Below, piece after piece: positions 22,817-34,990 of a stretch of DNA of 35,396 nt. The DNA comes from Planctomycetota bacterium (GTDB lineage Bacteria; Planctomycetota; Planctomycetia; Pirellulales; Pirellulaceae), in NCBI GenBank assembly GCA_027622275.1, contig JAQBZB010000062.1, positions 1 to 35,396 of the forward strand, read 5' to 3'. The first letter of the stretch is position 1. Each line of letters starts with the position of its first letter. A program made the translations under genes and the position numbers. Below the pieces are notes generated by a model that searched no databases, was not told where the DNA came from, and worked only from the letters and a program-made list of their open reading frames with translations.

Positions 22817-23842
22817 ATGTTTCGCCGATTCTGTTGTGCGCTAGTCCTTGTGTCGTTTTTCGCCCCTGCCATTGCCCCGGTCGCGCTCCGCGCGGAAGAC
22901 GAAGTCGCAAAGCCCGCCGGTCGCTACGCCGTTCCCGACGGTGACGTGGCAGCGATCCTCAAATTCTTGAAGGGCCTCGAAACGTATCGCCCAACGACAA
23001 CCGACGAGATCCTCGCTTATCGCCAAAATGCTCGAAAGGCAATCCAGACTGCGGCGGATCGAATCGTCAAGTTGGAAAAGGACAAGACTTCGGATGCCTA
23101 TCGTAAGGCTGGTGGGATTCAGTTGCAGCTCCGCTTGTCGGACGTTCAACAGGGGACCGCCGAGACGCATCGCACTTTCTACAACGACTTGCTGGCTCAT
23201 CTGAAAACGGCGAAGGCGGCTTCGCAGCAGGATCTCGCGATCGCCTTTACTTTCGGTCAAGCGATTGAACAACTTGGCAACGTCGAGCTGGCCAAAGAAG
23301 CGTATGGCGAATTCGGCAAGATTTTCTCGGGGAGCAAGGATAAGACGCTGGCCGGCTACGGCGAGAAACTCGCGGGTGTCGCTCGCCGGCTCGACCTGCT
23401 GGGTAAGGAGATGAAGATCGAAGGCGCTACCGCCAGCGGTGAACCGTTCGACTGGAAGGCGTATCGCGGCAAGGTTGTGTTGATTGACTATTGGGCGACC
23501 TGGTGTGGTCCGTGCATCGAGGAATTGCCGAACGTCAAAGAGAATTACGACAAGTATCACGGCAAAGGATTTGAAGTGGTCGGCATCAGCTTGGATTCGG
23601 ATCGCGGTCCGCTTCGGCGTTTCCTGGCGACGCACGAGATTCCGTGGGCCTGCCTGTTCGAGGAAGGCGCAGGCACCGATCACCCGATGGCCAATTACTA
23701 TGGCGTCATGCAGATCCCCACGACCATGCTCTTGGATCGCGATGGCAAAGTCCTGTCGATCGGAGTTCGCGGCAGTGAACTCGGTCGTCAGTTGGCAAAG
23801 CTACTCGGTCCTGATGATCAAGCCGGAGGAGCTTCCGAGTAG
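22817..23842 (+). CDS. TlpA-like thioredoxin, secreted
   Basis: A 341-residue extracytoplasmic protein-disulfide oxidoreductase of the TlpA/ResA type. A signal peptide covers about residues 1-26 (RFCCALVLVSFFAPAIAP, cleaved near LRA-ED). A helical region of about 180 residues with no recognised fold precedes the thioredoxin domain (about 205-335), which carries W229-C230-G-P-C233, GFEVVGISLDSD and the cis-Pro motif QIPTTMLLDRDGKV. AAGGA lies upstream of the ATG. It is followed, 126 bases later, by a longer paralogue. Confidence 0.88.
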   Translation: MFRRFCCALVLVSFFAPAIAPVALRAEDEVAKPAGRYAVPDGDVAAILKFLKGLETYRPTTTDEILAYRQNARKAIQTAADRIVKLEKDKTSDAYRKAGGIQLQLRLSDVQQGTAETHRTFYNDLLAHLKTAKAASQQDLAIAFTFGQAIEQLGNVELAKEAYGEFGKIFSGSKDKTLAGYGEKLAGVARRLDLLGKEMKIEGATASGEPFDWKAYRGKVVLIDYWATWCGPCIEELPNVKENYDKYHGKGFEVVGISLDSDRGPLRRFLATHEIPWACLFEEGAGTDHPMANYYGVMQIPTTMLLDRDGKVLSIGVRGSELGRQLAKLLGPDDQAGGASE

Positions 23843-23968
23843 GAAAATGCTAACCCGAGTTGGCGAAAGTCTAACCGAACGGCTTTACTCCAAACGCTCG
23901 GAATTCGCGCAGCCGCCCGCTCGCCTTTCGCGTAGAATGCGAGCAACTTTCTCCAACGAGGTACACGC

Positions 23969-25663
23969 ATGTCTCTCAAATTCATGACCGTTATAGCCGT
24001 CGCTTTCTGCGCACTCGTCATCGGTTGCGGGACCGAATCTGGGCCAATAACTTCCAAGTCGACGAACTATGAAGTCGGCGATGATTCGACGGGTGCGACA
24101 ACATCCAACGCCGCGGCTCCCGAAGCCACGGTTACGGCAGCGCTGTCGGACGCCACTTCCGTCGTCAATGGGCAGGTTCCGCCGCGACGCCCCGAGCCGA
24201 TGAAACAAACGCCCGCCGCCGGATCGAATTCGTCGGACATCGTGCAGCCAACTCCAGAGCAGCTCTTGACGGTGATTCGCCAGTTGCGTCAGCAGCAACC
24301 GAAGGGGGTGAATAACGAAGAAGTTATCGCGGACTTTGTGAACATTCAATCAAAACTCATTCCGGCCATCGACATGCTGCTTGCTCTGAAACCAGCCGAC
24401 GACACCGTCACGGAAGTCGCGGCCGCTAAAATCGAGGCTCTCACGGCCGTCTCGCAGTTGGGAGCGAAGGACGCGATGGAACAAGTGTTCGCCTTTATCG
24501 AGGAACTTGAACAGCATCCCAGCGAGAAGGTCAGCGCCTTCGGCCGGCAACAGTCTTTCGTCACGTTGCTCAACGCCTTCTCAACCGATCAGGTGACCGA
24601 TGCCCAGCAAGTAATCGATGCCTACAAGAAGCTGGCCGGGGAACAACCGAAGGAGGGCGGCCTGCTCGCGTTTGGACGCGATGTCGCCTCGCGGTTGATG
24701 GAGAAAGGACTGAATAACGAGGCGGCGGAGTTGTTGCGGTACACCGCCGGACTGGTCCAACCGACGCAGGACGCGAGGCTGAACGCCGCGGCTGACGCGA
24801 TTCTCGAACAGGCCAAGTTCGCGGAACTTGATTTGGGTACCAAACTGAGCGCGGTCGCCGAAGGGAAAGAAGGTGCGATCGAAGAGTTTACGAAGATGCT
24901 TGGCGAATTGACTGCAGGCGAAAAAGTCGGTCTCACGACTTTGCAAACGATCATGCAAATTGCCAGCATGCTCGAACCGGAACATGGGGACGCCGCCACG
25001 AAGGTCTATGATGTTCTCGAAGCGTCCTCGGCCAAGAGTTCGGACGAGGAATTCGCGGCGATCATCAAGGAGACGATTGACAAATATCGCCTGCGTTCCG
25101 CAATCGTCGGCAAACCATTCATCTTGGAAGGCAATCTGCTCGACGGAACGCCATTCGATTGGAATCAATACCAAGGGAAGGTGGTGCTCGTCGACTTCTG
25201 GGCGACGTGGTGCGGACCTTGCCTGCGAGAGATGCCGAACATTCGCGCCAATTTCGAGACGTATCGCGATCAGGGTTTTGAAGTCGTCGGCGTCAATCTC
25301 GACGAAGACGTCCAGGAACTCAAGGATTTCTCCTCGTTACAGCCGCTTCCTTGGCCGAGTGTGTTGAGCGCCGATCCGACCGCGGTTGGCTGGGAGCACC
25401 CGATGGCGGTGAGGAATGGTGTCGCAGCCATTCCATTTCTCGTGCTCGTCGATCGCGAAGGAATCGCGATCGCGTTGAACACGCGCGGCCCCGCGCTGGG
25501 CGAGAAACTGGCCGAACTGTTCCCCGATGCTGCTTCCGAAAGCGAGAAGCCGGCAGCAACGAAACCTGCCGACGACAAGCCGGCTGAGGCCGAACCGGCA
25601 TCGGAATCCGCGGCGGCAAATCCCGCGGAAGGAACTGCCAGCGACCCGGCTCCGCCCGAGTAA
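23969..25663 (+). CDS. TlpA-like thioredoxin lipoprotein
   Basis: A 564-residue lipoprotein. The lipobox LVIGC places the lipidated Cys at position 20, so the protein is probably membrane-anchored outside the cytoplasm. A helical, Ala/Glu-rich region (about 85-370) precedes a thioredoxin domain (about 375-525) with W414-C415-G-P-C418, GFEVVGVNLDEDV and the cis-Pro loop AIPFLVLVDREGI. The last 40 residues are a low-complexity Ala/Pro/Lys/Glu/Ser tail. The domain order and the sequence GKVVL(V/I)D.WATWCGPC match the upstream gene, so this is a diverged tandem paralogue. GAGG precedes the ATG. Confidence 0.88.
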   Translation: MSLKFMTVIAVAFCALVIGCGTESGPITSKSTNYEVGDDSTGATTSNAAAPEATVTAALSDATSVVNGQVPPRRPEPMKQTPAAGSNSSDIVQPTPEQLLTVIRQLRQQQPKGVNNEEVIADFVNIQSKLIPAIDMLLALKPADDTVTEVAAAKIEALTAVSQLGAKDAMEQVFAFIEELEQHPSEKVSAFGRQQSFVTLLNAFSTDQVTDAQQVIDAYKKLAGEQPKEGGLLAFGRDVASRLMEKGLNNEAAELLRYTAGLVQPTQDARLNAAADAILEQAKFAELDLGTKLSAVAEGKEGAIEEFTKMLGELTAGEKVGLTTLQTIMQIASMLEPEHGDAATKVYDVLEASSAKSSDEEFAAIIKETIDKYRLRSAIVGKPFILEGNLLDGTPFDWNQYQGKVVLVDFWATWCGPCLREMPNIRANFETYRDQGFEVVGVNLDEDVQELKDFSSLQPLPWPSVLSADPTAVGWEHPMAVRNGVAAIPFLVLVDREGIAIALNTRGPALGEKLAELFPDAASESEKPAATKPADDKPAEAEPASESAAANPAEGTASDPAPPE

Positions 25664-25673
25664 CGCCTTCGAA

Positions 25674-26165
25674 TTACGCCTCTGCCGCATTCACATACGG
25701 CACGACGGATTCGACTCCCGCGATGACCGTCAAGGACTGATCGGGCACTGGCTGATCGGGCACTGGCCGATCGATGGCGGATAGAAAGCGGCCGCCGTTC
25801 TCGTACCATCCGTGTCCATTGAATCGGCACCAAGTCAGGTCCATCAGCATTTCCACGCGTTCTGACAATTCGCAATCAAAGCTCACGATCACGCGGCGAT
25901 ACGACACCGGATGCTGGTAGTAAAAGTCGAACCCCTGATTGGTGAGATGCTTGCCGAGAACAACGATCGGCTCACCAACGATTTCGTTGCGAGCGTTCAC
26001 CGGAAGCAAACGGACCGGGTATGGAAACGGGTGTCGCTTGTGACGCCGCCGCTCGTCATGGGAGCGGTTTGGCGACGCCCCCTGCAGCGCGAACTGAACG
26101 CATCGCTCAATCTGTTCGTCCACGCCCATTCGCCGCTTCGCATTGCCACGAGATTCTTGTTGCAC
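25674..26165 (-). CDS. PilZ-like domain protein
   Basis: A 163-residue cytosolic protein. The block RRRHKRHPFPYPVRLLPVN, then GKHLTNQGFDFYYQHP and YENGGRFL, follows the layout of PilZ c-di-GMP-binding domains (an RxxxR-like basic turn, then a strand ending near Gly). However, the second motif reads LTNQG rather than (D/N)xSxxG, so binding is uncertain. The C-terminus contains a tandem repeat VPDQPVPDQ from a 15-bp duplication. The start is GTG at 26165, supported by GAGGAG 6 bases ahead. It converges with the TlpA lipoprotein gene, with stops only 10 bases apart. Confidence 0.6.
   Translation of the reverse strand: MQQESRGNAKRRMGVDEQIERCVQFALQGASPNRSHDERRRHKRHPFPYPVRLLPVNARNEIVGEPIVVLGKHLTNQGFDFYYQHPVSYRRVIVSFDCELSERVEMLMDLTWCRFNGHGWYENGGRFLSAIDRPVPDQPVPDQSLTVIAGVESVVPYVNAAEA
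25737..25766. repeat. 15-bp perfect tandem duplication
   Basis: ctgatcgggcactgg occurs twice in direct succession (25737-25751 and 25752-25766). It lies inside the 3' end of the PilZ-like gene and keeps the frame, adding five residues (VPDQP repeat). A third, partial copy follows (ccgatcg). Confidence 0.85.
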
Positions 26166-26232
26166 GGTTCTCTCCTCATGGGGGCGCGGAGCGGAAGATG
26201 TGTCCAGACAAATACACTAACCCGGATTATTC

Positions 26233-26305
26233 ATCAGCCGCCTGGCGCTAGCCTGCGGTTCTCGCGAACTTCGAGAGAACCGCTCGCTAGCGCGTGGCGG
26301 CTGAT
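26233..26305. repeat. Long hairpin repeat, planctomycete type
   Basis: The arms atcagccgcctggcgctagc... and ...gctagcgcgtggcggctgat pair over more than 30 positions with only two 2-base mismatches, closing on a loop near gcgaacttc. It lies in the 215-base gap between the PilZ-like gene and the TPR gene. The sequence looks like the cagccgcc...gctagc hairpins I associate with planctomycete intergenic regions, though I could not confirm other copies here. Confidence 0.65.
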
Positions 26306-26380
26306 TTGCGCGAGTGGAGCGCAAAAGTCTCGTGCATCCGTAACGAATGGCGGATCACGAAAGGCCATTAGTCATATACG

Positions 26381-27643
26381 TCACAGATCGGCAGTCGTCA
26401 AACGGCTGGCGGCGTTTTGGAGCTGTGGATCGGTTGGATCAAGTTCCAGTCCCCAGCGCATGAGTCTGTCCGACTCGTCGCGGCGTCCACCGCGTTCCAA
26501 CCGTTCGGCGGCTGCTTGAATTGCAAGCGAGCGATAGCGGGAGATCTCGGCCAAGTCATCGAACCATTCGCCTGCCTCCTCGAACAACTTAGCGGCACGC
26601 TCAAGATCGCCACTCTCATAGAACGAACTCGCCCACTGTCCGAGAACAGCCAAGCGACCGCGATCGAACAAGGCAACCTCGGGGCGTCGCTGGCGGGCCG
26701 CGTGAAGAATCTGCATCGCCTCGGCATAGCGACGTTCCTCGCACAAATCGACTGCCCACCGCTGGTGAATATGAACGTCATTGGCCAACAAGGGCTCGAA
26801 TTCGGAATGTTCGCGGCAACCTTCTTGGATCAACTCGACTGCCCGCTCAAAGTTCCCCGCATCACATTCCGCCAACGCCCAGTTATTCAAGCCGGCTGCC
26901 ATGTTATCCCGAGTCGGCTCGTCCGCCGGATCGAGCAACTGGCTGGTCCGCAACAAGGCAATCGCCTGGTCAAAGTCCTTCTTTTCCAAGAGCGAAACGC
27001 CGCGATTGTAGTAGATTTTGGCCAATAGCTGGACGTCCGATAGCTGACGCGTCACTTGCCCTTGCGTCCGGAGCACTTGCGCCTGCGGATCGCGGCGCAC
27101 GACATCGAACCATTCACGGCAGGTCGTCTCGACGTCGCAGGTCTGATCTTCCAGAAACCGGCTTCGCACGTGCGTGTTCGTCGCTACGGCAACCGGCGAC
27201 AGACCGTGAACGTGGCAGATGCAATGGTACAAGATCGTCGCCGTGACACAGTTGTAATCGCCCTCGTCCAGCGTCCGGTCAAGCTCGGTACAAGTACTGT
27301 GATACTGACCTGTCAGGATCTCGCTGTGCAGGAATTGATAAACGCGCTCCGAAGTTGTGATTGCCGTCGGCCCATCGCCGCCGGAGGTAACAATCGCCGC
27401 AATGCGATGGGCGAAGTCCGAGCGATAGTGCTCAACTTTTTGCAGGTCGGTCACACCACTGGCAATCAGGGCACCTTCCAGCAATGAAAAATCATCCAAC
27501 GAATCGTCCGTGGCATCCGCCAGCAGAAGCTGCTCCGTCACCGCGGGATCATCCGCGCGGACCTGTGCTGTCGTTGTAACCGATCCAAGTAAGATCGAAG
27601 CGACAACGATCGGCAAGTTGCGGATTGTCGGCCGTACAATCAT
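26381..27643 (-). CDS. Secreted transglutaminase-like/TPR protein
   Basis: A 420-residue exported protein. Residues 1-31 form a signal peptide (LPIVVASILLGSVTT, cleaved near VRA-DD). An N-terminal domain (about 60-190) looks like a transglutaminase or SirB1-type fold: C132 in GDYNCVTATILYH, followed by H158 in ATNTHVRSRF as possible Cys-His pair. From about 220 onward there are TPR-like helices (IYYNRGVSLLEKKDFDQAIA, NNWALAECDAGNFERAVELI and others). The function is unknown. GTG at 27646 is also possible, but ATG 27643 has AGGA at better spacing. It is divergent from the motor-like operon, sharing a 180-base regulatory region. Confidence 0.72.
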   Translation of the reverse strand: MIVRPTIRNLPIVVASILLGSVTTTAQVRADDPAVTEQLLLADATDDSLDDFSLLEGALIASGVTDLQKVEHYRSDFAHRIAAIVTSGGDGPTAITTSERVYQFLHSEILTGQYHSTCTELDRTLDEGDYNCVTATILYHCICHVHGLSPVAVATNTHVRSRFLEDQTCDVETTCREWFDVVRRDPQAQVLRTQGQVTRQLSDVQLLAKIYYNRGVSLLEKKDFDQAIALLRTSQLLDPADEPTRDNMAAGLNNWALAECDAGNFERAVELIQEGCREHSEFEPLLANDVHIHQRWAVDLCEERRYAEAMQILHAARQRRPEVALFDRGRLAVLGQWASSFYESGDLERAAKLFEEAGEWFDDLAEISRYRSLAIQAAAERLERGGRRDESDRLMRWGLELDPTDPQLQNAASRLTTADL

Positions 27644-27711
27644 CACGACTGGTCCTGCTGGTTTCCGAAGGCCACAAACGACCCACTTGACGAGTCACTT
27701 TGGAAACATAG

Positions 27712-27825: not shown

Positions 27826-29391
27826 ATGGTGCAATCTCAAGTGAATCTTTTGCTGGCGTCTGGCCTGACCGACATGATTGGCAGCCACTGGTCGATCGTA
27901 CTCGCGGTCGGCCTGTTGTTTTTTGCGGTCCAGATCACCCTCTGTTTCCGTTTCTTTCGCTGGCTGAGCAAATACGTCCGGACACTGACCACTCTGAGCG
28001 AAGATGCGGAGCGCGGAGGCGACGGGCGGAAGAACATCGAACAGCTGGCGGCTCATTTTCCGTGGTTGAAATGGGTGAACAGCAACTTTCCTACGGGAAC
28101 GACCACACCGGGTAACTACACGCGCGAAGACGTCTTGCACGAACTCGACACACGGATCGCAAGCAGCTCCGATTATTTGTTGCTTCAGCGGATGGGAGTG
28201 ATGGCTCCGTTGTTGGGCGTGATTCTGACCGTCCTCGGGTTCCCGTTCATTCAACTGCCCGAGACGGAAGATCCCAGTCTCGACCAAATGCTGGATGTTG
28301 TCACACCCTTGGTTGCCGGTGTCGGCACCGGTGCGGTTCTCGCGCTGATTAATCAGTGGCTCTTGCACATCGCCGGCGGCCGCGCCGAAGCGATGCGAAT
28401 GATCGGCCGGACTTGGTTCGATTCCGCGATTTGGTATTCGGTCGGCTTGGACACGCAGGCGGCGACGGTCAAGGCGATCGCGGCCATCGAGCGGATGGCC
28501 AAGTCGGTTTCGGAATCGGCGGACCATCAGGCCGAGAACGCTCACCGCTTGGTCGAATCGACATCGGCCATACGGCACGCGGCGGCCGAGTTCCGGGAAA
28601 TCGTTCAAGTCTTTGGCACCGACATCAAGGATCTACCCGACACCTTGCGCGATGTGCGCGATGCCAGCGCCGCATCGGCCCAGGCGCTCAACGCTTTGAT
28701 TCCGGTTGGCCAGCGGGCCGTTGCCGGACTTGATGTCTCGGTCTCCGCATTCCGCACGTCCGTGGAGCAGGACTTCATCCCGGCGGCGACGCGGCATCGC
28801 GAGTCGCTCGATTCTCTGTCCGACTGCAACTTGAAGGCGCTGGGCGATTCGTCGTCGCGAATCCAGGCAGCGGCAAAGGCAGTGACGGAAGGAACGGCGC
28901 TCTTCAGCAAAGTCTTGGGCGAACAGTCACAATTCTCCGAACTTCTGAATCCCATTCAGCAGACGCTGCACGAGTCGATCGATCGGCTCTCGAAATCGGG
29001 AGCCCAGTTGGAAGCGACGGTAAACACCGAGATGAATCCTTCGCAGCGGGCATTTAGCGAAGCGGCAGCGTCGTTCACCACATCCGCCTCGCAATTGGCA
29101 AGCTTCATCGAAAAAGGCGTTGAACCCGCGACGAAACGGCTCGCCGAACTGCATCGGACGCTCGCGGGGCTGGAACAGACCGCGAAAGCCATGCAGGAAT
29201 TTGGCCGCGCCGGCGGCGACGTCGACCGGATTACGAAATCGCTGGCCGACGCTGCCGACGTCGCCGATGCCATCGCGGCTTTGCCGGGTCAGATCCGTGA
29301 AGCGCTCGACCAGCACGCCGAGGCCCAGGCCGTGGTCGCTGGTTCCAAAGGGAAGTTGATGGGTTGGCTCCGCAGCCGTCCGGTTGAATAA
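27826..29391 (+). CDS. MotA/TolQ/ExbB-like membrane protein with long tail
   Basis: A 521-residue inner-membrane protein with the topology of the proton-channel family: helix 1 at about 20-44, a cytoplasmic segment of about 80 residues, helix 2 at 124-146 and helix 3 at 158-184. Helix 2 carries MAPLLGVILTVLGF, matching the family aP-lG-lGTvlG pattern, and helix 3 reads VVTPLVAGVGTGAVLALINQ, like the aL-tTa-GL-vAi pattern. The remaining 330 residues are helical, Ala/Ser/Glu-rich and predicted cytoplasmic, reminiscent of the tail of ZorA. No flagellar or Tol/Ton partner is nearby. The ATG at 27826 is the best start but lacks a good ribosome-binding site; an AGGAGG at 27786-27791 is 34 bases away. 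Confidence 0.72.
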   Translation: MVQSQVNLLLASGLTDMIGSHWSIVLAVGLLFFAVQITLCFRFFRWLSKYVRTLTTLSEDAERGGDGRKNIEQLAAHFPWLKWVNSNFPTGTTTPGNYTREDVLHELDTRIASSSDYLLLQRMGVMAPLLGVILTVLGFPFIQLPETEDPSLDQMLDVVTPLVAGVGTGAVLALINQWLLHIAGGRAEAMRMIGRTWFDSAIWYSVGLDTQAATVKAIAAIERMAKSVSESADHQAENAHRLVESTSAIRHAAAEFREIVQVFGTDIKDLPDTLRDVRDASAASAQALNALIPVGQRAVAGLDVSVSAFRTSVEQDFIPAATRHRESLDSLSDCNLKALGDSSSRIQAAAKAVTEGTALFSKVLGEQSQFSELLNPIQQTLHESIDRLSKSGAQLEATVNTEMNPSQRAFSEAAASFTTSASQLASFIEKGVEPATKRLAELHRTLAGLEQTAKAMQEFGRAGGDVDRITKSLADAADVADAIAALPGQIREALDQHAEAQAVVAGSKGKLMGWLRSRPVE

Positions 29392-29418
29392 TGGATTACC
29401 CAACGGGAGGAAACCGCC

Positions 29419-30861
29419 ATGCAACTTGAAAGAGCATCGTCACATTCGGGCGAGGCCGGTCTCGCCGGATGGATCTCGACCAACGACGTTACGCTGTTCA
29501 CCATGGTCCTCGTGGTGCTGATCGCGTTGCTTTTGAACAGCAATCTGCTGAAGAAGTCGAAGGCGCTCGACGAGAAGTCGGCCGAAGCGAAGACGTTGCT
29601 CCAGGATCTGGATTCGACCAGTGCCGAGCTTGGAGCGACGTCGCAGCAGCGCGACTCGCTCGACGAACAGTTGGAGGCCAGCAGGCTGGATCTCAAAACG
29701 ACGAGCGAATCACTGCGGATCACTCAGGAAGAACGGGCGGCGTTGAAGAAGCAGCTGGATGAGACGATGTCGCATGTCGCGAGCCTGACCGATAAGCTCG
29801 CAGGTCTCAAGCTCGAAAAGACCGATCTGGAAATCGCGAAGTCGGTCTTGGAGAAGCAGAAGGAAGATCTGACAACGCAGGCAGGCACGCTGACAAAGGA
29901 GAAAACGACGCTCAACGATCAGCTTGCGACGCTCACCGAAAAGCTCCAGGAAAAGTTGGATGCACTGAAGGACGTCGAAGTGCAGCGGGAGCGTCTTGAG
30001 AAACAAGCCGATGAACTCGACAAGATCGTGCTAGGACTGCAAGCGAAACTCAACGCCGCCGGAACCGATTTGGTCGCCATGCGGAAGTTAAGCGAGCAGG
30101 AGAAGGCGCTCGCCGCGGCCCAGCTCAAGGCACTTGAAGAGAAGACAGCCACGGAATCGGCCAGGGCGGAAGATTACCTGGCTCGTCTGCGTCGCGCTGC
30201 GGAACTGTTCAAGGGCCTGCAGGCTGACAAGAAGAATCTCACGACCCAGTTGACCGACGCCGAACAGCGATTCCAGCAACAGTTGCTCGTCGAAACGCGG
30301 ATTAACCGCGAGCTGGTCGGGATCAAAGGTGACTTGAAACGCGTGGCCGTGCTGTTCGACGCATCGGGCAGCATGAAACAGGCCGGCAACGGCGGCGGGG
30401 ACCGCTGGCAGGAGGCACAACAGATTGCTCGGACCTGGTTACAACATCTAGACGTCGATGAATGTGTCTTGATTGTCTATTCGTCCGATGTGCGGACGTT
30501 CCCGGCGGACGGGACGCTGGCCAACGTTCGTGGCGAGAACGGCGAGGCCGCGCGGCACGCGTTGCTCGAACACCTTACCGGCGTCGAGCCGAAGGGTTGG
30601 ACCAATACACTCGAAGCCATGCGGAAGGCCTACGCGTACGAAGGCATCGATTCGATGATATTGTTTTCCGACGGAGCCCCGACGAATCCGAATCTCGGAC
30701 GATTCGATCAAGCCGTCGCCGACGAGATTTATGCGTTGTGCCGCGAGCATGAAAAGATTCCGGTGAACACCGTCGGCTTGGGCAATTACTTCGACGCCGA
30801 CCTGGGCACCTTCCTCCGCACGGTGGCCAGCGTCACCGGCGGGTCATTTCTTGGGCGCTAA
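29419..30861 (+). CDS. Membrane-anchored coiled-coil vWA-domain protein
   Basis: A 480-residue protein in three parts. Residues 18-42 (WISTNDVTLFTMVLVVLIAL, then LLN) form one membrane helix preceded by an Asp (D23), like the MotB/ExbD/ZorB helix. Residues 44-305 form a long, heptad-rich coiled coil with many Glu, Lys and Leu. Residues 308-480 form a von Willebrand A domain with an intact MIDAS: D314-A-S-G-S, T395 in WTNT and D418 in FSDGAP. Most MotB or ZorB proteins end instead in an OmpA-like peptidoglycan-binding domain, which is absent here. The ATG has GGGAGGAAA upstream and lies 27 bases after the partner gene, so they form an operon. Confidence 0.8.
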   Translation: MQLERASSHSGEAGLAGWISTNDVTLFTMVLVVLIALLLNSNLLKKSKALDEKSAEAKTLLQDLDSTSAELGATSQQRDSLDEQLEASRLDLKTTSESLRITQEERAALKKQLDETMSHVASLTDKLAGLKLEKTDLEIAKSVLEKQKEDLTTQAGTLTKEKTTLNDQLATLTEKLQEKLDALKDVEVQRERLEKQADELDKIVLGLQAKLNAAGTDLVAMRKLSEQEKALAAAQLKALEEKTATESARAEDYLARLRRAAELFKGLQADKKNLTTQLTDAEQRFQQQLLVETRINRELVGIKGDLKRVAVLFDASGSMKQAGNGGGDRWQEAQQIARTWLQHLDVDECVLIVYSSDVRTFPADGTLANVRGENGEAARHALLEHLTGVEPKGWTNTLEAMRKAYAYEGIDSMILFSDGAPTNPNLGRFDQAVADEIYALCREHEKIPVNTVGLGNYFDADLGTFLRTVASVTGGSFLGR

Positions 30862-30908
30862 GGGAACTAAGGACCGTTCCAGAAACAAGAGTCCGATATT
30901 GAAGTGGC

Positions 30909-30953
30909 GGTGGCTTCCAGCCGCCGTTGAATAGGTGGCGGCTGGAAGCCACC
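30909..30953. repeat. 17-bp perfect hairpin after the vWA gene
   Basis: ggtggcttccagccgcc (30909-30925) and ggcggctggaagccacc (30937-30953) are perfect inverted repeats with an 11-base loop. It sits between the vWA gene and the permease, where a terminator would be expected, but has no T tract. The cagccgcc core is shared with the hairpin at 26233-26305. Confidence 0.7.
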
Positions 30954-31030
30954 ACTACGCCAGCTATATCTCGATCGGTCCTAACGCGCAGGCCGCGCCG
31001 GCGTCAAAGGGCTCCGCGTGAAAGGATTCC

Positions 31031-33908: not shown

Positions 33909-34222
33909 TCAATCTGCCTCTAACACAACGCGGAAGCCATAGAAATAGTGCCGGGCATCTGCATAGTTCCGGCTTCGATTTGCGGAACGGGAGTATCTCG
34001 CGCCGTGAAGCCATGAGCCACCACGAAGGACTCGCTTAGGGCCGATGATGGCCGGCCCTGTCGGGTCGCTCGTCGGCGAATTGGCGTAGTAGTCACCATC
34101 GTACGAATCTTGGCACCACTCCCAGACGTTCCCGTGCATGTCAAATAAGCCAAGAGGATTTTCAGCGAATTGTCCAACCTTCGAGGTAAAGACAATGCCA
34201 TCGTTAGCTGACAGGTATTCGT
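33909..34222 (-). pseudogene. SUMF1/FGE-like domain, 5' truncated
   Basis: The translation (EYLSANDGIVFTSKVGQF, GLFDMHGNVWEWCQDSYD, RVLRGGSWLHGARYSRSANR, YFYGFRVVLEAD) is the C-terminal third of a SUMF1 (formylglycine-generating-enzyme-like) domain. The two catalytic Cys of true FGE in the region after RGGSW are absent, so the parent was probably a non-FGE SUMF1 protein. The upstream part is missing: beyond about 34222 the DNA belongs to a transposase in another frame. The stop is TGA at 33909-33911. Confidence 0.8.
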
Positions 34223-34229
34223 GTTCAAC

Positions 34230-34651
34230 GCTCGAAAGACACGCTCCAAGCAACGCCCGACGCGATCGTCGTTGAGCTGCTTGATTTGTTCGGGTCGCAA
34301 GTCGAACAGACCGGGATCGAACTCGCGCGCCCACTCGGCCACGCCGTAAACCGGTTCGCGCGAGACCAGCAGATTGTTGAGCAGCAACAAGAGGACGCGC
34401 GGCGCGGCGACCTTGGTGCGTCCGTCCTCGGGCGGCAGGTGCTGTTGCAGAAAGTCGTGCAACCGCAGGCGTTGGAGCAACCGCTGGAGGATGGGGAGCG
34501 CTCCGATCGAGTGCGTGACGAGTGTTGTGCCGTCGTGCGTGTGGGCGGTTCTTCCGGTCGCGGAGTGGCGTGGTTGAGTGGTTGGTGTGGTGGTTGTTTG
34601 CTTGGTGGTCTTGTGCTTTCGGGTTGACGGCTTGGCTTTCCGTTTCGACAT
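34230..34651 (-). pseudogene. IS1634-type transposase, N-terminal fragment (DUF4277)
   Basis: From ATG 34651 (MSKRKAKPSTRKHK) the frame reads HSIGALPILQRLLQRLRLHD, LLNNLLVSREPVYGVAEWA and LNDDRVGRCLERVFRA, the pattern of the DUF4277 N-terminus of IS1634-family transposases. It stops resembling the family after LERVFRA, at about 34230, where the SUMF1 fragment begins. The catalytic domain is lost. It was probably a full element cut by a deletion that joined it to the SUMF1 gene. Confidence 0.75.
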
Positions 34652-34990
34652 GAGCGTGCCTTCTTGGCGAGGTGGTGGTGAGGTCATCGAGACGCCACCA
34701 CGGTAGGCCACACCACGTGTCGCGTCGCGTCATCGGCGCGCGCCGCCAACAAGTTACGTCGAGGAGCATGGACGTAAGTCGAGTCGAACTCAACTTACGT
34801 CGAGGTGATTTTTCGCAAGTCAACATCTGCCGACTTTCTCGCGTGCTGGACACCTAGTTGCGCGTCTACAATCCGGCAAGTTCACCTCGCTCCGTTTGCC
34901 AATTCACAGTAGGTCTGCCCGCGTTTACGCGCACCGCCGTCATCATTCGAAAGCCACAAAATCAAAAGTTATTCAGGACGAGATGTGCGG
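34652..34990. other. Non-coding stretch between two transposase remnants
   Basis: About 340 bases upstream of the IS1634-type fragment. It holds an inverted repeat at 34771-34801 and a direct repeat ttacgtcgagg (34754-34764 and 34795-34805). It then runs into the broken IS1380 copy with no recognisable gene. Confidence 0.5.
34771..34801. repeat. Inverted repeat near the IS1634-type fragment
   Basis: gacgtaagtcgagt (34771-34784), loop cga, then actcaacttacgtc (34788-34801): 13 of 14 positions pair. It lies about 120 bases before the transposase start and may be part of the element's end, but no partner end is available. Confidence 0.5.

What the first reader, a model, noticed from the sequence alone, without database searches (positions are those of the whole stretch)
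27826..30861. Possible ion-driven motor with a vWA head instead of a peptidoglycan-binding domain
Sequence shows a two-gene operon. Protein 1 has the TolQ/ExbB helix layout, MAPLLGVILTVLGF in helix 2 and a long helical tail. Protein 2 has a single helix with an Asp at its start, a coiled coil of about 260 residues and a vWA domain with complete MIDAS residues (D314, T395, D418). Established knowledge: MotA/MotB, ExbB/ExbD, TolQ/TolR and ZorA/ZorB are 5:2 motors whose second subunit usually ends in a periplasmic peptidoglycan-binding domain. Inference: this is a related motor whose stator subunit carries a vWA domain for binding a protein ligand.
Basis: partly seen in the sequence, partly recalled or inferred. 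Interest (0 to 1): 0.78.

Follow-up and report, generated by a model that had tools for sequence, protein, structure and literature searches.

The report
Planctomycete membrane motor with vWA head
Two neighbouring genes in a planctomycete bacterium probably encode an ion-driven membrane motor whose long stalk ends in an adhesion-type (vWA) domain, a divergent version of a motor type proposed in 2025 and not yet tested at the bench.

Summary
Gene 1 (27826-29391) and gene 2 (29419-30861) are adjacent, 27 bp apart, and under purifying selection. Gene 2 is one transmembrane helix, about 260 residues of coiled coil and a vWA domain with an invariant MIDAS. Gene 1 has no Pfam MotA_ExbB hit. Its AlphaFold model, however, finds chains of ZorAB, ExbB and TolQR entries at Foldseek ranks 1-43 of PDB, and its conserved TM2 Thr aligns with theirs.

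Strong gene-2 matches occur in 13 of 241 family genomes, all among the 14 with gene 1, and the two proteins co-diverge (r = 0.955, 14 pairs). vWA-coil relatives sit beside genuine MotA_ExbB genes in two other genomes. Best reading: a 5:2-type ion motor whose B subunit carries a vWA head instead of a peptidoglycan binder.

The kind is not new: PMC12204202 (2025) proposed TolQ + 'transpore-helix vWA' motors without TolR. New here are a Pfam-invisible A subunit, a single B gene, a very long stalk, and relatives with the head replaced. Topology is the weak point: positive charges follow the gene-2 helix in 16 of 17 rows, against a periplasmic vWA. Ion flow, stoichiometry and ligand are untested.

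The parts
27826..29391 (+). Gene 1: ExbB/TolQ/ZorA-like A subunit with long helical C-terminal tail, 521 aa
   Evidence: ORF; AlphaFold model of residues 1-330 finds ZorAB/ExbB/TolQR chains at Foldseek ranks 1-43; dN/dS about 0.07
27883..27951 (+). TM1, residues about 20-42, followed by a K/R-rich flank, predicted cytoplasmic
   Evidence: hydropathy and flank charges
28180..28251 (+). TM2, residues about 119-142, with invariant A127-P128-G131-V132
28228..28230 (+). T135, Thr in 15 and Ser in 1 of 16 rows; aligns with the invariant TM2 Thr of MotA/ExbB-type proteins
28297..28371 (+). TM3, residues about 158-182, with invariant P161, G165, G169, A173; no conserved Thr/Ser as in ExbB/TolQ TM3
28438..29388 (+). 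Long helical tail, residues 205-521, predicted cytoplasmic; ORFs of relatives are 364-878 aa
   Evidence: model reaches residue 330 only
29405..29410 (+). GGGAGG, probable ribosome-binding site of gene 2
   Evidence: sequence; function inferred
29419..30861 (+). Gene 2: B subunit, 480 aa: TM helix, coiled-coil stalk, vWA head
29479..29547 (+). Transmembrane helix with motif G17-W18-I19 ... D23
   Evidence: G17, W18, I19 in 17 of 17 rows, D23 in 16 of 17 (Glu in the other)
29485..29487 (+). D23, proposed ion-carrying residue
   Evidence: role inferred from MotB/ExbD/TolR/ZorB
29551..30318 (+). Coiled-coil stalk, residues 45-300; model shows helix 21-217, a break at 218-228, helix 229-300
30334..30858 (+). 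vWA domain, residues 306-480, MIDAS D314-x-S316-x-S318, T395, D418

Best explanation
The pair encodes a trans-envelope ion-driven motor of the ExbB-ExbD / TolQ-TolR / MotA-MotB / ZorA-ZorB type. Gene 1 is the ring-forming A subunit: three TM helices and a long cytoplasmic helical tail. Gene 2 is the axle (B) subunit: a short N-terminal tail, a transpore helix with D23, a stiff coiled-coil stalk up to tens of nanometres long, and a metal-dependent vWA head. Ion flow past D23 and the ring Thr (T135) would turn or pull the stalk, and the vWA head would hold a protein or surface ligand in place of the peptidoglycan-binding domain of MotB/TolR/ZorB. Shown here: the gene pair, the predicted folds, the conserved residues, co-occurrence and co-divergence. 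Inferred: 5:2 assembly, ion flow, periplasmic position of the vWA, force output and ligand.
For: Fold of gene 1: Foldseek PDB ranks 1-43 of the 50 shown are chains of ZorAB, ExbB/ExbBD or TolQ/TolQR(A) entries, probability 0.96-1.00; VIA-align ExbB Z 11.9, rmsd 5.5 over 201 residues, TolQ-TolR chain Z 11.7, rmsd 4.0 over 190. Profile-profile comparison with 13 MotA/ExbB-type proteins (11 PF01618 members of the window's genome, 2 from other genomes) gives P = 7.5e-4 and puts T135 on their invariant TM2 Thr. T135 is Thr or Ser in 16 of 16 rows. Gene 2: acidic residue at helix start in 17 of 17 rows, vWA fold, MIDAS invariant in 14 of 14 rows. Partnership: the 13 genomes with a gene-2 match at E<=1e-70 all lie among the 14 gene-1 genomes of 241 searched; distance matrices of 14 pairs correlate at r = 0.955, 0 of 5000 permutations reaching it, two unlinked pairs included. 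vWA-coil relatives of gene 2 lie beside genuine MotA_ExbB genes: G030/L119 (PF01618 6.3e-13; gene-2 profile 2.3e-42 and 1.6e-25) and G127/L124 (6.6e-8; 5.0e-26).
Against: No Pfam MotA_ExbB hit for gene 1 at E<=1, and it is absent from the 11 PF01618 places in its own genome. Foldseek E-values are 0.009-0.14, none <=0.001; unrelated long-helix chains also reach Z about 11. hhalign probabilities are low: 25%, and 21% and 10% in two further comparisons. The TM3 Thr is not conserved. Gene-2 helix against ExbD/MotB helices: prob 16%, with D23 not placed on the ExbD Asp. K/R in the 15 residues after the gene-2 helix outnumber those in the 15 before in 16 of 17 rows (sums 45 against 6), against 4 of 12 ExbD/MotB-type controls (sums 18 against 27): by the positive-inside rule this favours a cytoplasmic vWA. 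Profile searches of PDB sequences showed no motor chain among the 60 best rows listed. No complex was modelled.
Confidence: 0.57

Rival explanations
1. Gene 2 is inserted the other way round: short N-tail outside, coiled coil and vWA in the cytoplasm next to the long tail of gene 1. The pair is then a membrane-anchored cytoplasmic vWA scaffold or sensor, or a motor working on the cytoplasmic side.
For: K/R lie on the C-terminal side of the gene-2 helix in 16 of 17 rows, against 4 of 12 ExbD/MotB-type controls. One distant non-vWA relative locus holds an Hsp70-family gene, Pfam HSP70 2.2e-54 (L027), and another (L076) has genes similar to it, pointing to the cytoplasm.
Against: Controls with known B-type helices also break the rule (for example MotB, 0 before and 2 after). 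MotA_ExbB-linked vWA relatives have 3, 3 and 3 K/R in the N-tail against 1, 1 and 3 after the helix; of all 7 vWA relatives counted, 3 have more before, 2 equal, 2 more after. Some close relatives have an acidic C-flank (L022, L024, L078). An acidic residue at the N-end of the helix is the B-subunit arrangement.
Confidence: 0.26
2. The pair kept the 5:2 architecture but lost ion conduction, and is a passive trans-envelope tether or mechanosensor.
For: The TM3 Thr is not conserved; gene 1 is too diverged for Pfam; one relative has Glu at the Asp position.
Against: TM2 Thr/Ser is kept in 16 of 16 rows and the acidic residue in 17 of 17; both genes are under purifying selection.
Confidence: 0.11
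3. A Zorya-like phage-defence motor: ZorA-like long tail, ZorB-like partner with a swapped sensor head.
For: Best Foldseek hit is ZorA; long cytoplasmic tail; patchy occurrence, 14 of 241 family genomes.
Against: PADLOC ZorA hits are weak and their best stretches lie in the helical tail. The neighbouring genes of the window scanned with Pfam gave no defence effector apart from a Uma2-type putative nuclease about 5 kb away.
Confidence: 0.06

Closest known systems
TolQ-like + 'transpore-helix vWA' (TPH-vWA) motors, PMC12204202 (Mol Biol Evol 2025; section 8 with Fig. 4 legend read)
   Same: TolQ-type gene directly beside a TM-vWA gene with an Asp in the helix and no TolR/ExbD; vWA in place of a peptidoglycan binder; the paper's AF3-based proposal is that the vWA protein is the dimeric partner
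   Different: Published ones are stated to be mostly heterologous vWA pairs, mainly in Proteobacteria and Verrucomicrobia. Here one B gene, about 260-residue stalk, A subunit not found by Pfam, planctomycetes. Direct comparison with the Idiomarina proteins was not possible; L119 (MotA_ExbB + two tandem relatives of gene 2) is the nearest case examined
ZorA-ZorB of Zorya
   Same: A subunit with long cytoplasmic helical tail; ZorA is the best Foldseek hit; B subunit with a conserved Asp (PMC11890865, passages)
   Different: vWA instead of a peptidoglycan-binding domain; no Zorya effector seen beside it; ZorA profiles match the tail
ExbB-ExbD / TolQ-TolR / MotA-MotB
   Same: Three-TM A-subunit core (MotA has four, recalled), TM2 Thr, acidic residue at the B-helix start
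   Different: TM3 Thr lost, no ExbD/TolR/OmpA-like periplasmic domain, long tails
TolA/TonB-like vWA transducers of PMC12204202 (first type)
   Same: Inner-membrane vWA protein linked to a motor
   Different: Those have an SHLS-motif helix and lie beside TolQ- and TolR-like genes; in the window the genes next to the pair are a TPR gene and a permease, and the helix has no SHLS

Membership tests
MotA/TolQ/ExbB (PF01618) | Match to the Pfam profile above cut-off | tested here: not met
   No hit at E<=1; own-genome PF01618 search finds 11 other places
MotA/TolQ/ExbB (PF01618) | Three-TM A-subunit fold | tested here: met
   Foldseek ranks 1-43, VIA-align Z 11.9; model pLDDT 75, pTM 0.51; predicted fold only
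MotA/TolQ/ExbB (PF01618) | Conserved TM2 Thr | tested here: met
   T135 Thr/Ser in 16 of 16 rows, aligned with the family's TM2 Thr
MotA/TolQ/ExbB (PF01618) | Conserved TM3 Thr | tested here: not met
   No conserved Thr/Ser in TM3
MotA/TolQ/ExbB (PF01618) | Pentamer around a B dimer, ion flow | not testable with these tools
   No multimer prediction or assay
TPH-vWA motor class (PMC12204202) | TolQ-type gene adjacent to TM-vWA gene, no TolR/ExbD gene | tested here: met
   In the window. Of 14 family genomes with gene 1: 11 have the vWA gene adjacent, 2 have it elsewhere, 1 has a partner without vWA; their other neighbours were not scanned for TolR
TPH-vWA motor class (PMC12204202) | Conserved Asp in the vWA protein's helix | tested here: met
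   D23 in 16 of 17 rows, Glu in 1 (the 14 vWA-bearing rows all have Asp)
TPH-vWA motor class (PMC12204202) | Helix inserted in the pentamer with vWA in the periplasm | tested here: inconclusive
   Flank charges lean the other way, relatives mixed; no multimer model
TPH-vWA motor class (PMC12204202) | Two heterologous vWA genes (stated as predominant, not required) | tested here: not met
   One vWA gene at the locus
Zorya (ZorAB) | ZorB peptidoglycan-binding domain | tested here: not met
   vWA at that place
Zorya (ZorAB) | Linked effectors ZorC/D/E | tested here: inconclusive
   Neighbour genes scanned with Pfam only, not with PADLOC
vWA domain | vWA fold with full MIDAS | tested here: met

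The most novel reading that the evidence does not exclude
A planctomycete family of ion-driven motors with exchangeable heads: the same diverged ring subunit and the same G-W-I-(S/A)-x-x-(D/E) axle helix are paired with a vWA head here and, in L027, L075 and L076, with a coiled coil ending in a different domain in which Pfam sees no vWA. Two of these copies (L027, L076) lie near Hsp70-type genes, so some members may couple ion flow to a cytoplasmic chaperone machine rather than only to the outer membrane.
Probability: 0.2. Interest if true: 0.72.

Novelty: new variant of a known kind. Interest (0 to 1): 0.46.

Why it matters
If right, it adds a branch to the 5:2 motors whose A subunit Pfam does not see, so counts made with PF01618 would miss it. 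It would be a single-axle version with a very long stalk, simpler to model and mutate than the heteropaired published class. Lacipirellula limnantheis strain I41 (L050) carries the pair, so the idea can be tested in a named strain. It bears on how planctomycetes, with their unusual envelope, transmit force to the surface.

Tried and rejected
Single-sequence Pfam, NCBIfam, PADLOC and PDB searches: for gene 1 in effect only matches in the helical tail, for gene 2 coil matches and the vWA. Profile searches of PDB with A6 and A2 were swamped by coiled coils (spike proteins, myosins); the 60 rows shown of 383 and of 317 hold no motor chain, which is no evidence either way. A ZorA profile over 149 phylum genomes gave four weak places, none at a gene-1 locus; two of them (L079, L082) went into the comparison set A4. 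Viral contigs: no relative. Zorya membership was rejected for the reasons in the table. The first-type vWA transducer (SHLS helix beside TolQR) was rejected for want of a TolR-type neighbour. Of the 43 VWA_2 places in the genome none lies within 20 kb of its 11 PF01618 places on the same contig, so no second motor-vWA pairing was seen there with these profiles.

An own error: one search gave a gene1-gene2 matrix correlation of 0.61 because one reference was out of frame. One search checked the frames, and one search repeated the test in frame (0.955). stands only for the charge counts and the co-occurrence figure (hypergeometric 1.3e-20), which ignores shared descent and uses a threshold (E<=1e-70) chosen after seeing the list. 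Rows left out: A6 omits G001 (near copy), G037 (X residues, short ORF) and G145 (gene 1 lacks its first half); A7 omits G001 (cut by a contig end) and G099 (found later); the matrix test uses 14 pairs and omits G001 and G145.

On recounting the flank charges for this report (16 of 17 rows against 4 of 12 controls) I lowered the best explanation from 0.62 to 0.57 and raised the cytoplasmic rival from 0.20 to 0.26.

Not done: complex prediction; direct comparison with the Idiomarina TPH-vWA proteins; a signal or topology predictor beyond charge counts; PADLOC scan of neighbours.
Full report
Observation. The window holds two same-strand genes as described: gene 1 at 27826-29391 (521 aa) and gene 2 at 29419-30861 (480 aa), 27 bp apart. 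Gene 1 has TM helices near residues 23-41, 124-142 and 157-180, an acidic TM2-TM3 loop, K/R after TM1 and TM3, and a long helical tail. Gene 2 has one TM helix starting at D23, a coiled coil (heptad excess 0.33 against a maximum of 0.28 in 500 shuffles) and a vWA domain (PF13519 2.3e-6; Foldseek matches vWA chains such as CLCA1, 7.9e-8, rmsd 2.3 over 180 columns). In the four comparisons made with G001 and G002, dN is 0.07-0.12 and dS 1.0-1.5.

Is gene 1 an A subunit? Sequence profiles do not show it: no PF01618 hit at E<=1, and the genome's 11 PF01618 places do not include it. Structure says yes: the model of residues 1-330 (16-row alignment, pLDDT 75, pTM 0.51) has chains of ZorAB, ExbB or TolQ entries at Foldseek ranks 1-43 of the 50 shown, E 0.009-0.14, none <=0.001. 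VIA-align puts ExbB first (Z 11.9, 201 residues, rmsd 5.5) and a TolQ-TolR chain at rmsd 4.0 over 190 residues. The tool warns that long helices can reach such Z by shape alone; unrelated chains do here, for instance Z 11.0 at rmsd 18.9 over the whole model, and Z 10.8 at rmsd 1.6 for a chemoreceptor matching the tail only. Profile-profile comparison with 13 MotA/ExbB-type proteins gives P 7.5e-4, probability 25%, in the expected register: T135 lies on their invariant TM2 Thr; two further comparisons gave P 1.1e-3 and 3.2e-3. T135 is Thr in 15 and Ser in 1 of 16 rows; the TM3 Thr is not conserved.

Is gene 2 its partner? Gene-2 matches at E<=1e-70 occur in 13 of 241 family genomes, all within the 14 that hold gene 1. 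Two of the 13 matches are partial in the profile (G020 from position 80, G145 from 271), and G001's is cut by a contig end. In 11 of the 14 a vWA gene 2 is adjacent; in G021 and G099 it lies elsewhere; in G010 the partner has no vWA. G145's gene 1 is a partial match (E 9.5e-7) whose ORF lacks the first half. Over the phylum, 5 of 392 sampled genomes matched gene 1, the window's own included and one of them only at 5.9e-4. Three more linked pairs come from one peptide-pattern scan of the 84,980-species collection: 72 stretches, 11 confirmed loci, 8 of them genomes already seen, 3 new (L047, L048 and Lacipirellula limnantheis L050); ten of the 11 record titles name planctomycete taxa (partly by recall), one says only 'bacterium'. 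Gaps between the genes are 1-264 bp in 14 loci. Distances of gene 1 and gene 2 correlate at 0.955 over 14 pairs, 0 of 5000 permutations reaching it, with two unlinked pairs included. Shared species history alone could give part of this.

Link to known motors. At E<=1e-10 profile A7 also matches 20 of the 241 genomes more weakly, mostly over vWA and coil. I looked at 11 such genomes. In G030 (L119) two such genes in tandem (2.3e-42, 1.6e-25) follow a gene with PF01618 at 6.3e-13; in G127 (L124) a single one (5.0e-26) follows PF01618 at 6.6e-8. Pfam itself sees a vWA in only one of these three above cut-off (L119 4842-5600; L124 at 5.9e-5 is below, L119 3717-4820 gives none), so the other two rest on profile A7. 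G107, G040, G267 and G204 (L118, L120, L122, L123) have such a gene next to, or in L120 near, a small multi-TM protein; the two partners scanned (L118, L122) have no PF01618 hit. For G268 (L121) no partner was seen on its short contig. G261, G255, G210 and G008 (E 1e-11 to 1e-13) are proteins with another N-terminal part and no motor gene among the ORFs listed: vWA relatives without a motor. L119 looks like the arrangement described in PMC12204202. In the window's own genome the best other vWA scores only 4.4e-4 with A7 although 43 VWA_2 places exist. So gene 2 is closest to TM-coil-vWA proteins, of which two sets examined are motor-linked; this is a lean, not a proof.

Topology. If the helix lies as in MotB/ExbD (N-end inside), the vWA is periplasmic. 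An acidic residue at the N-end of the helix fits (17 of 17 rows). Charges do not: in the window's protein no K/R in the 15 residues before the helix and 4 in the 15 after; over 17 rows the sums are 6 and 45, with more after than before in 16, while in 12 ExbD/MotB-type controls they are 27 and 18, with more after in 4. In seven vWA relatives the N-tail has more K/R than the 15 residues after the helix in 3, equal in 2, fewer in 2; the three MotA_ExbB-linked ones have 3, 3, 3 against 1, 1, 3. I keep periplasmic as more likely, at about 2 to 1. The helix profile did not align with ExbD/MotB at the Asp.

How it would work (inferred). Five A subunits around two B helices; ions pass D23 and T135 and turn or pull the B stalk. 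The model stalk is a helix of 197 residues, a break, then 72 residues: at 0.15 nm per residue about 40 nm if straight or about 20 nm if folded back at the break. The MIDAS vWA head would grip a ligand with a metal ion, in place of peptidoglycan binding. What the ligand is cannot be told.

Novelty. PMC12204202 (passages; section 8 in full) already proposes this kind. PMC12505986 and PMC11890865 were seen in passages and PMC7159879 in passages; none of those passages describes such a pair. Searches listed no other paper that by its listing describes a TolQ-vWA motor; one search found none, searches showed 10 of 56, 12 of 36 and 12 of 26 papers, and the library is open-licence PMC only. The variant features are the Pfam-invisible A subunit, one B gene, the long stalk and the exchange of heads: L027, L075 and L076 keep the axle motif but show no vWA among the Pfam families listed (for L075 the best 25 of 34). 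Verdict: a real, probably functional motor-type pair, a new variant of a known kind, with unproven topology.

Noticed in passing
window 30905-30960: Strong hairpin just after gene 2 (RNA fold of 30895-30965: -46.6 kcal/mol, z -7.7) is one copy of a genome-wide repeat: GGTGGCGGCTGGAAGCCACC with up to 1 mismatch occurs 53 + 62 times in the genome against 0 for the reversed control, often as facing pairs and at contig starts; a REP-like element.
   Followed up: partly
L027 2546-12821 and L076 164-10974: Distant relatives of the pair lie near Hsp70-family genes (Pfam HSP70 2.2e-54 in L027; blastp cluster with two L076 genes); their B proteins end in a domain without Pfam vWA that shares a V-x-D-P motif and Cys residues by eye.
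   Followed up: partly
L118, L120, L122, L123: A further two-gene kind in other genomes of the family: a small multi-TM protein with a coil (no PF01618 hit in the two scanned, L118 and L122) next to or near a TM-coil-vWA protein related to gene 2 with W-x-x-x-D/E at the helix start.
   Followed up: no
window 22817-27646: Upstream block (two redoxin-type genes, a 163-aa gene without Pfam hit, a TPR gene with a signal-like N-terminus) has counterparts beside the pair in G001, G002 and G018 (one longer ORF there in place of the two redoxin genes), out of 20 loci compared. Downstream or nearby, one other gene cluster is shared by L023, L024, L047 and L073.
   Followed up: partly
L038 and L039 (own genome): Two MotA_ExbB proteins with long tails are followed by TM-coil proteins whose helix (S-L-F-P-F-L) carries no Asp by eye, unlike normal B subunits.
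   Followed up: no
window 33909-34853: An FGE-sulfatase-type domain (PF03781 1.1e-23) is at the C-terminal end of an ORF whose first part looks out of character by eye, possibly a fused or broken gene; an overlapping frame (33920-34711) reads like a transposase start by eye.
   Followed up: no
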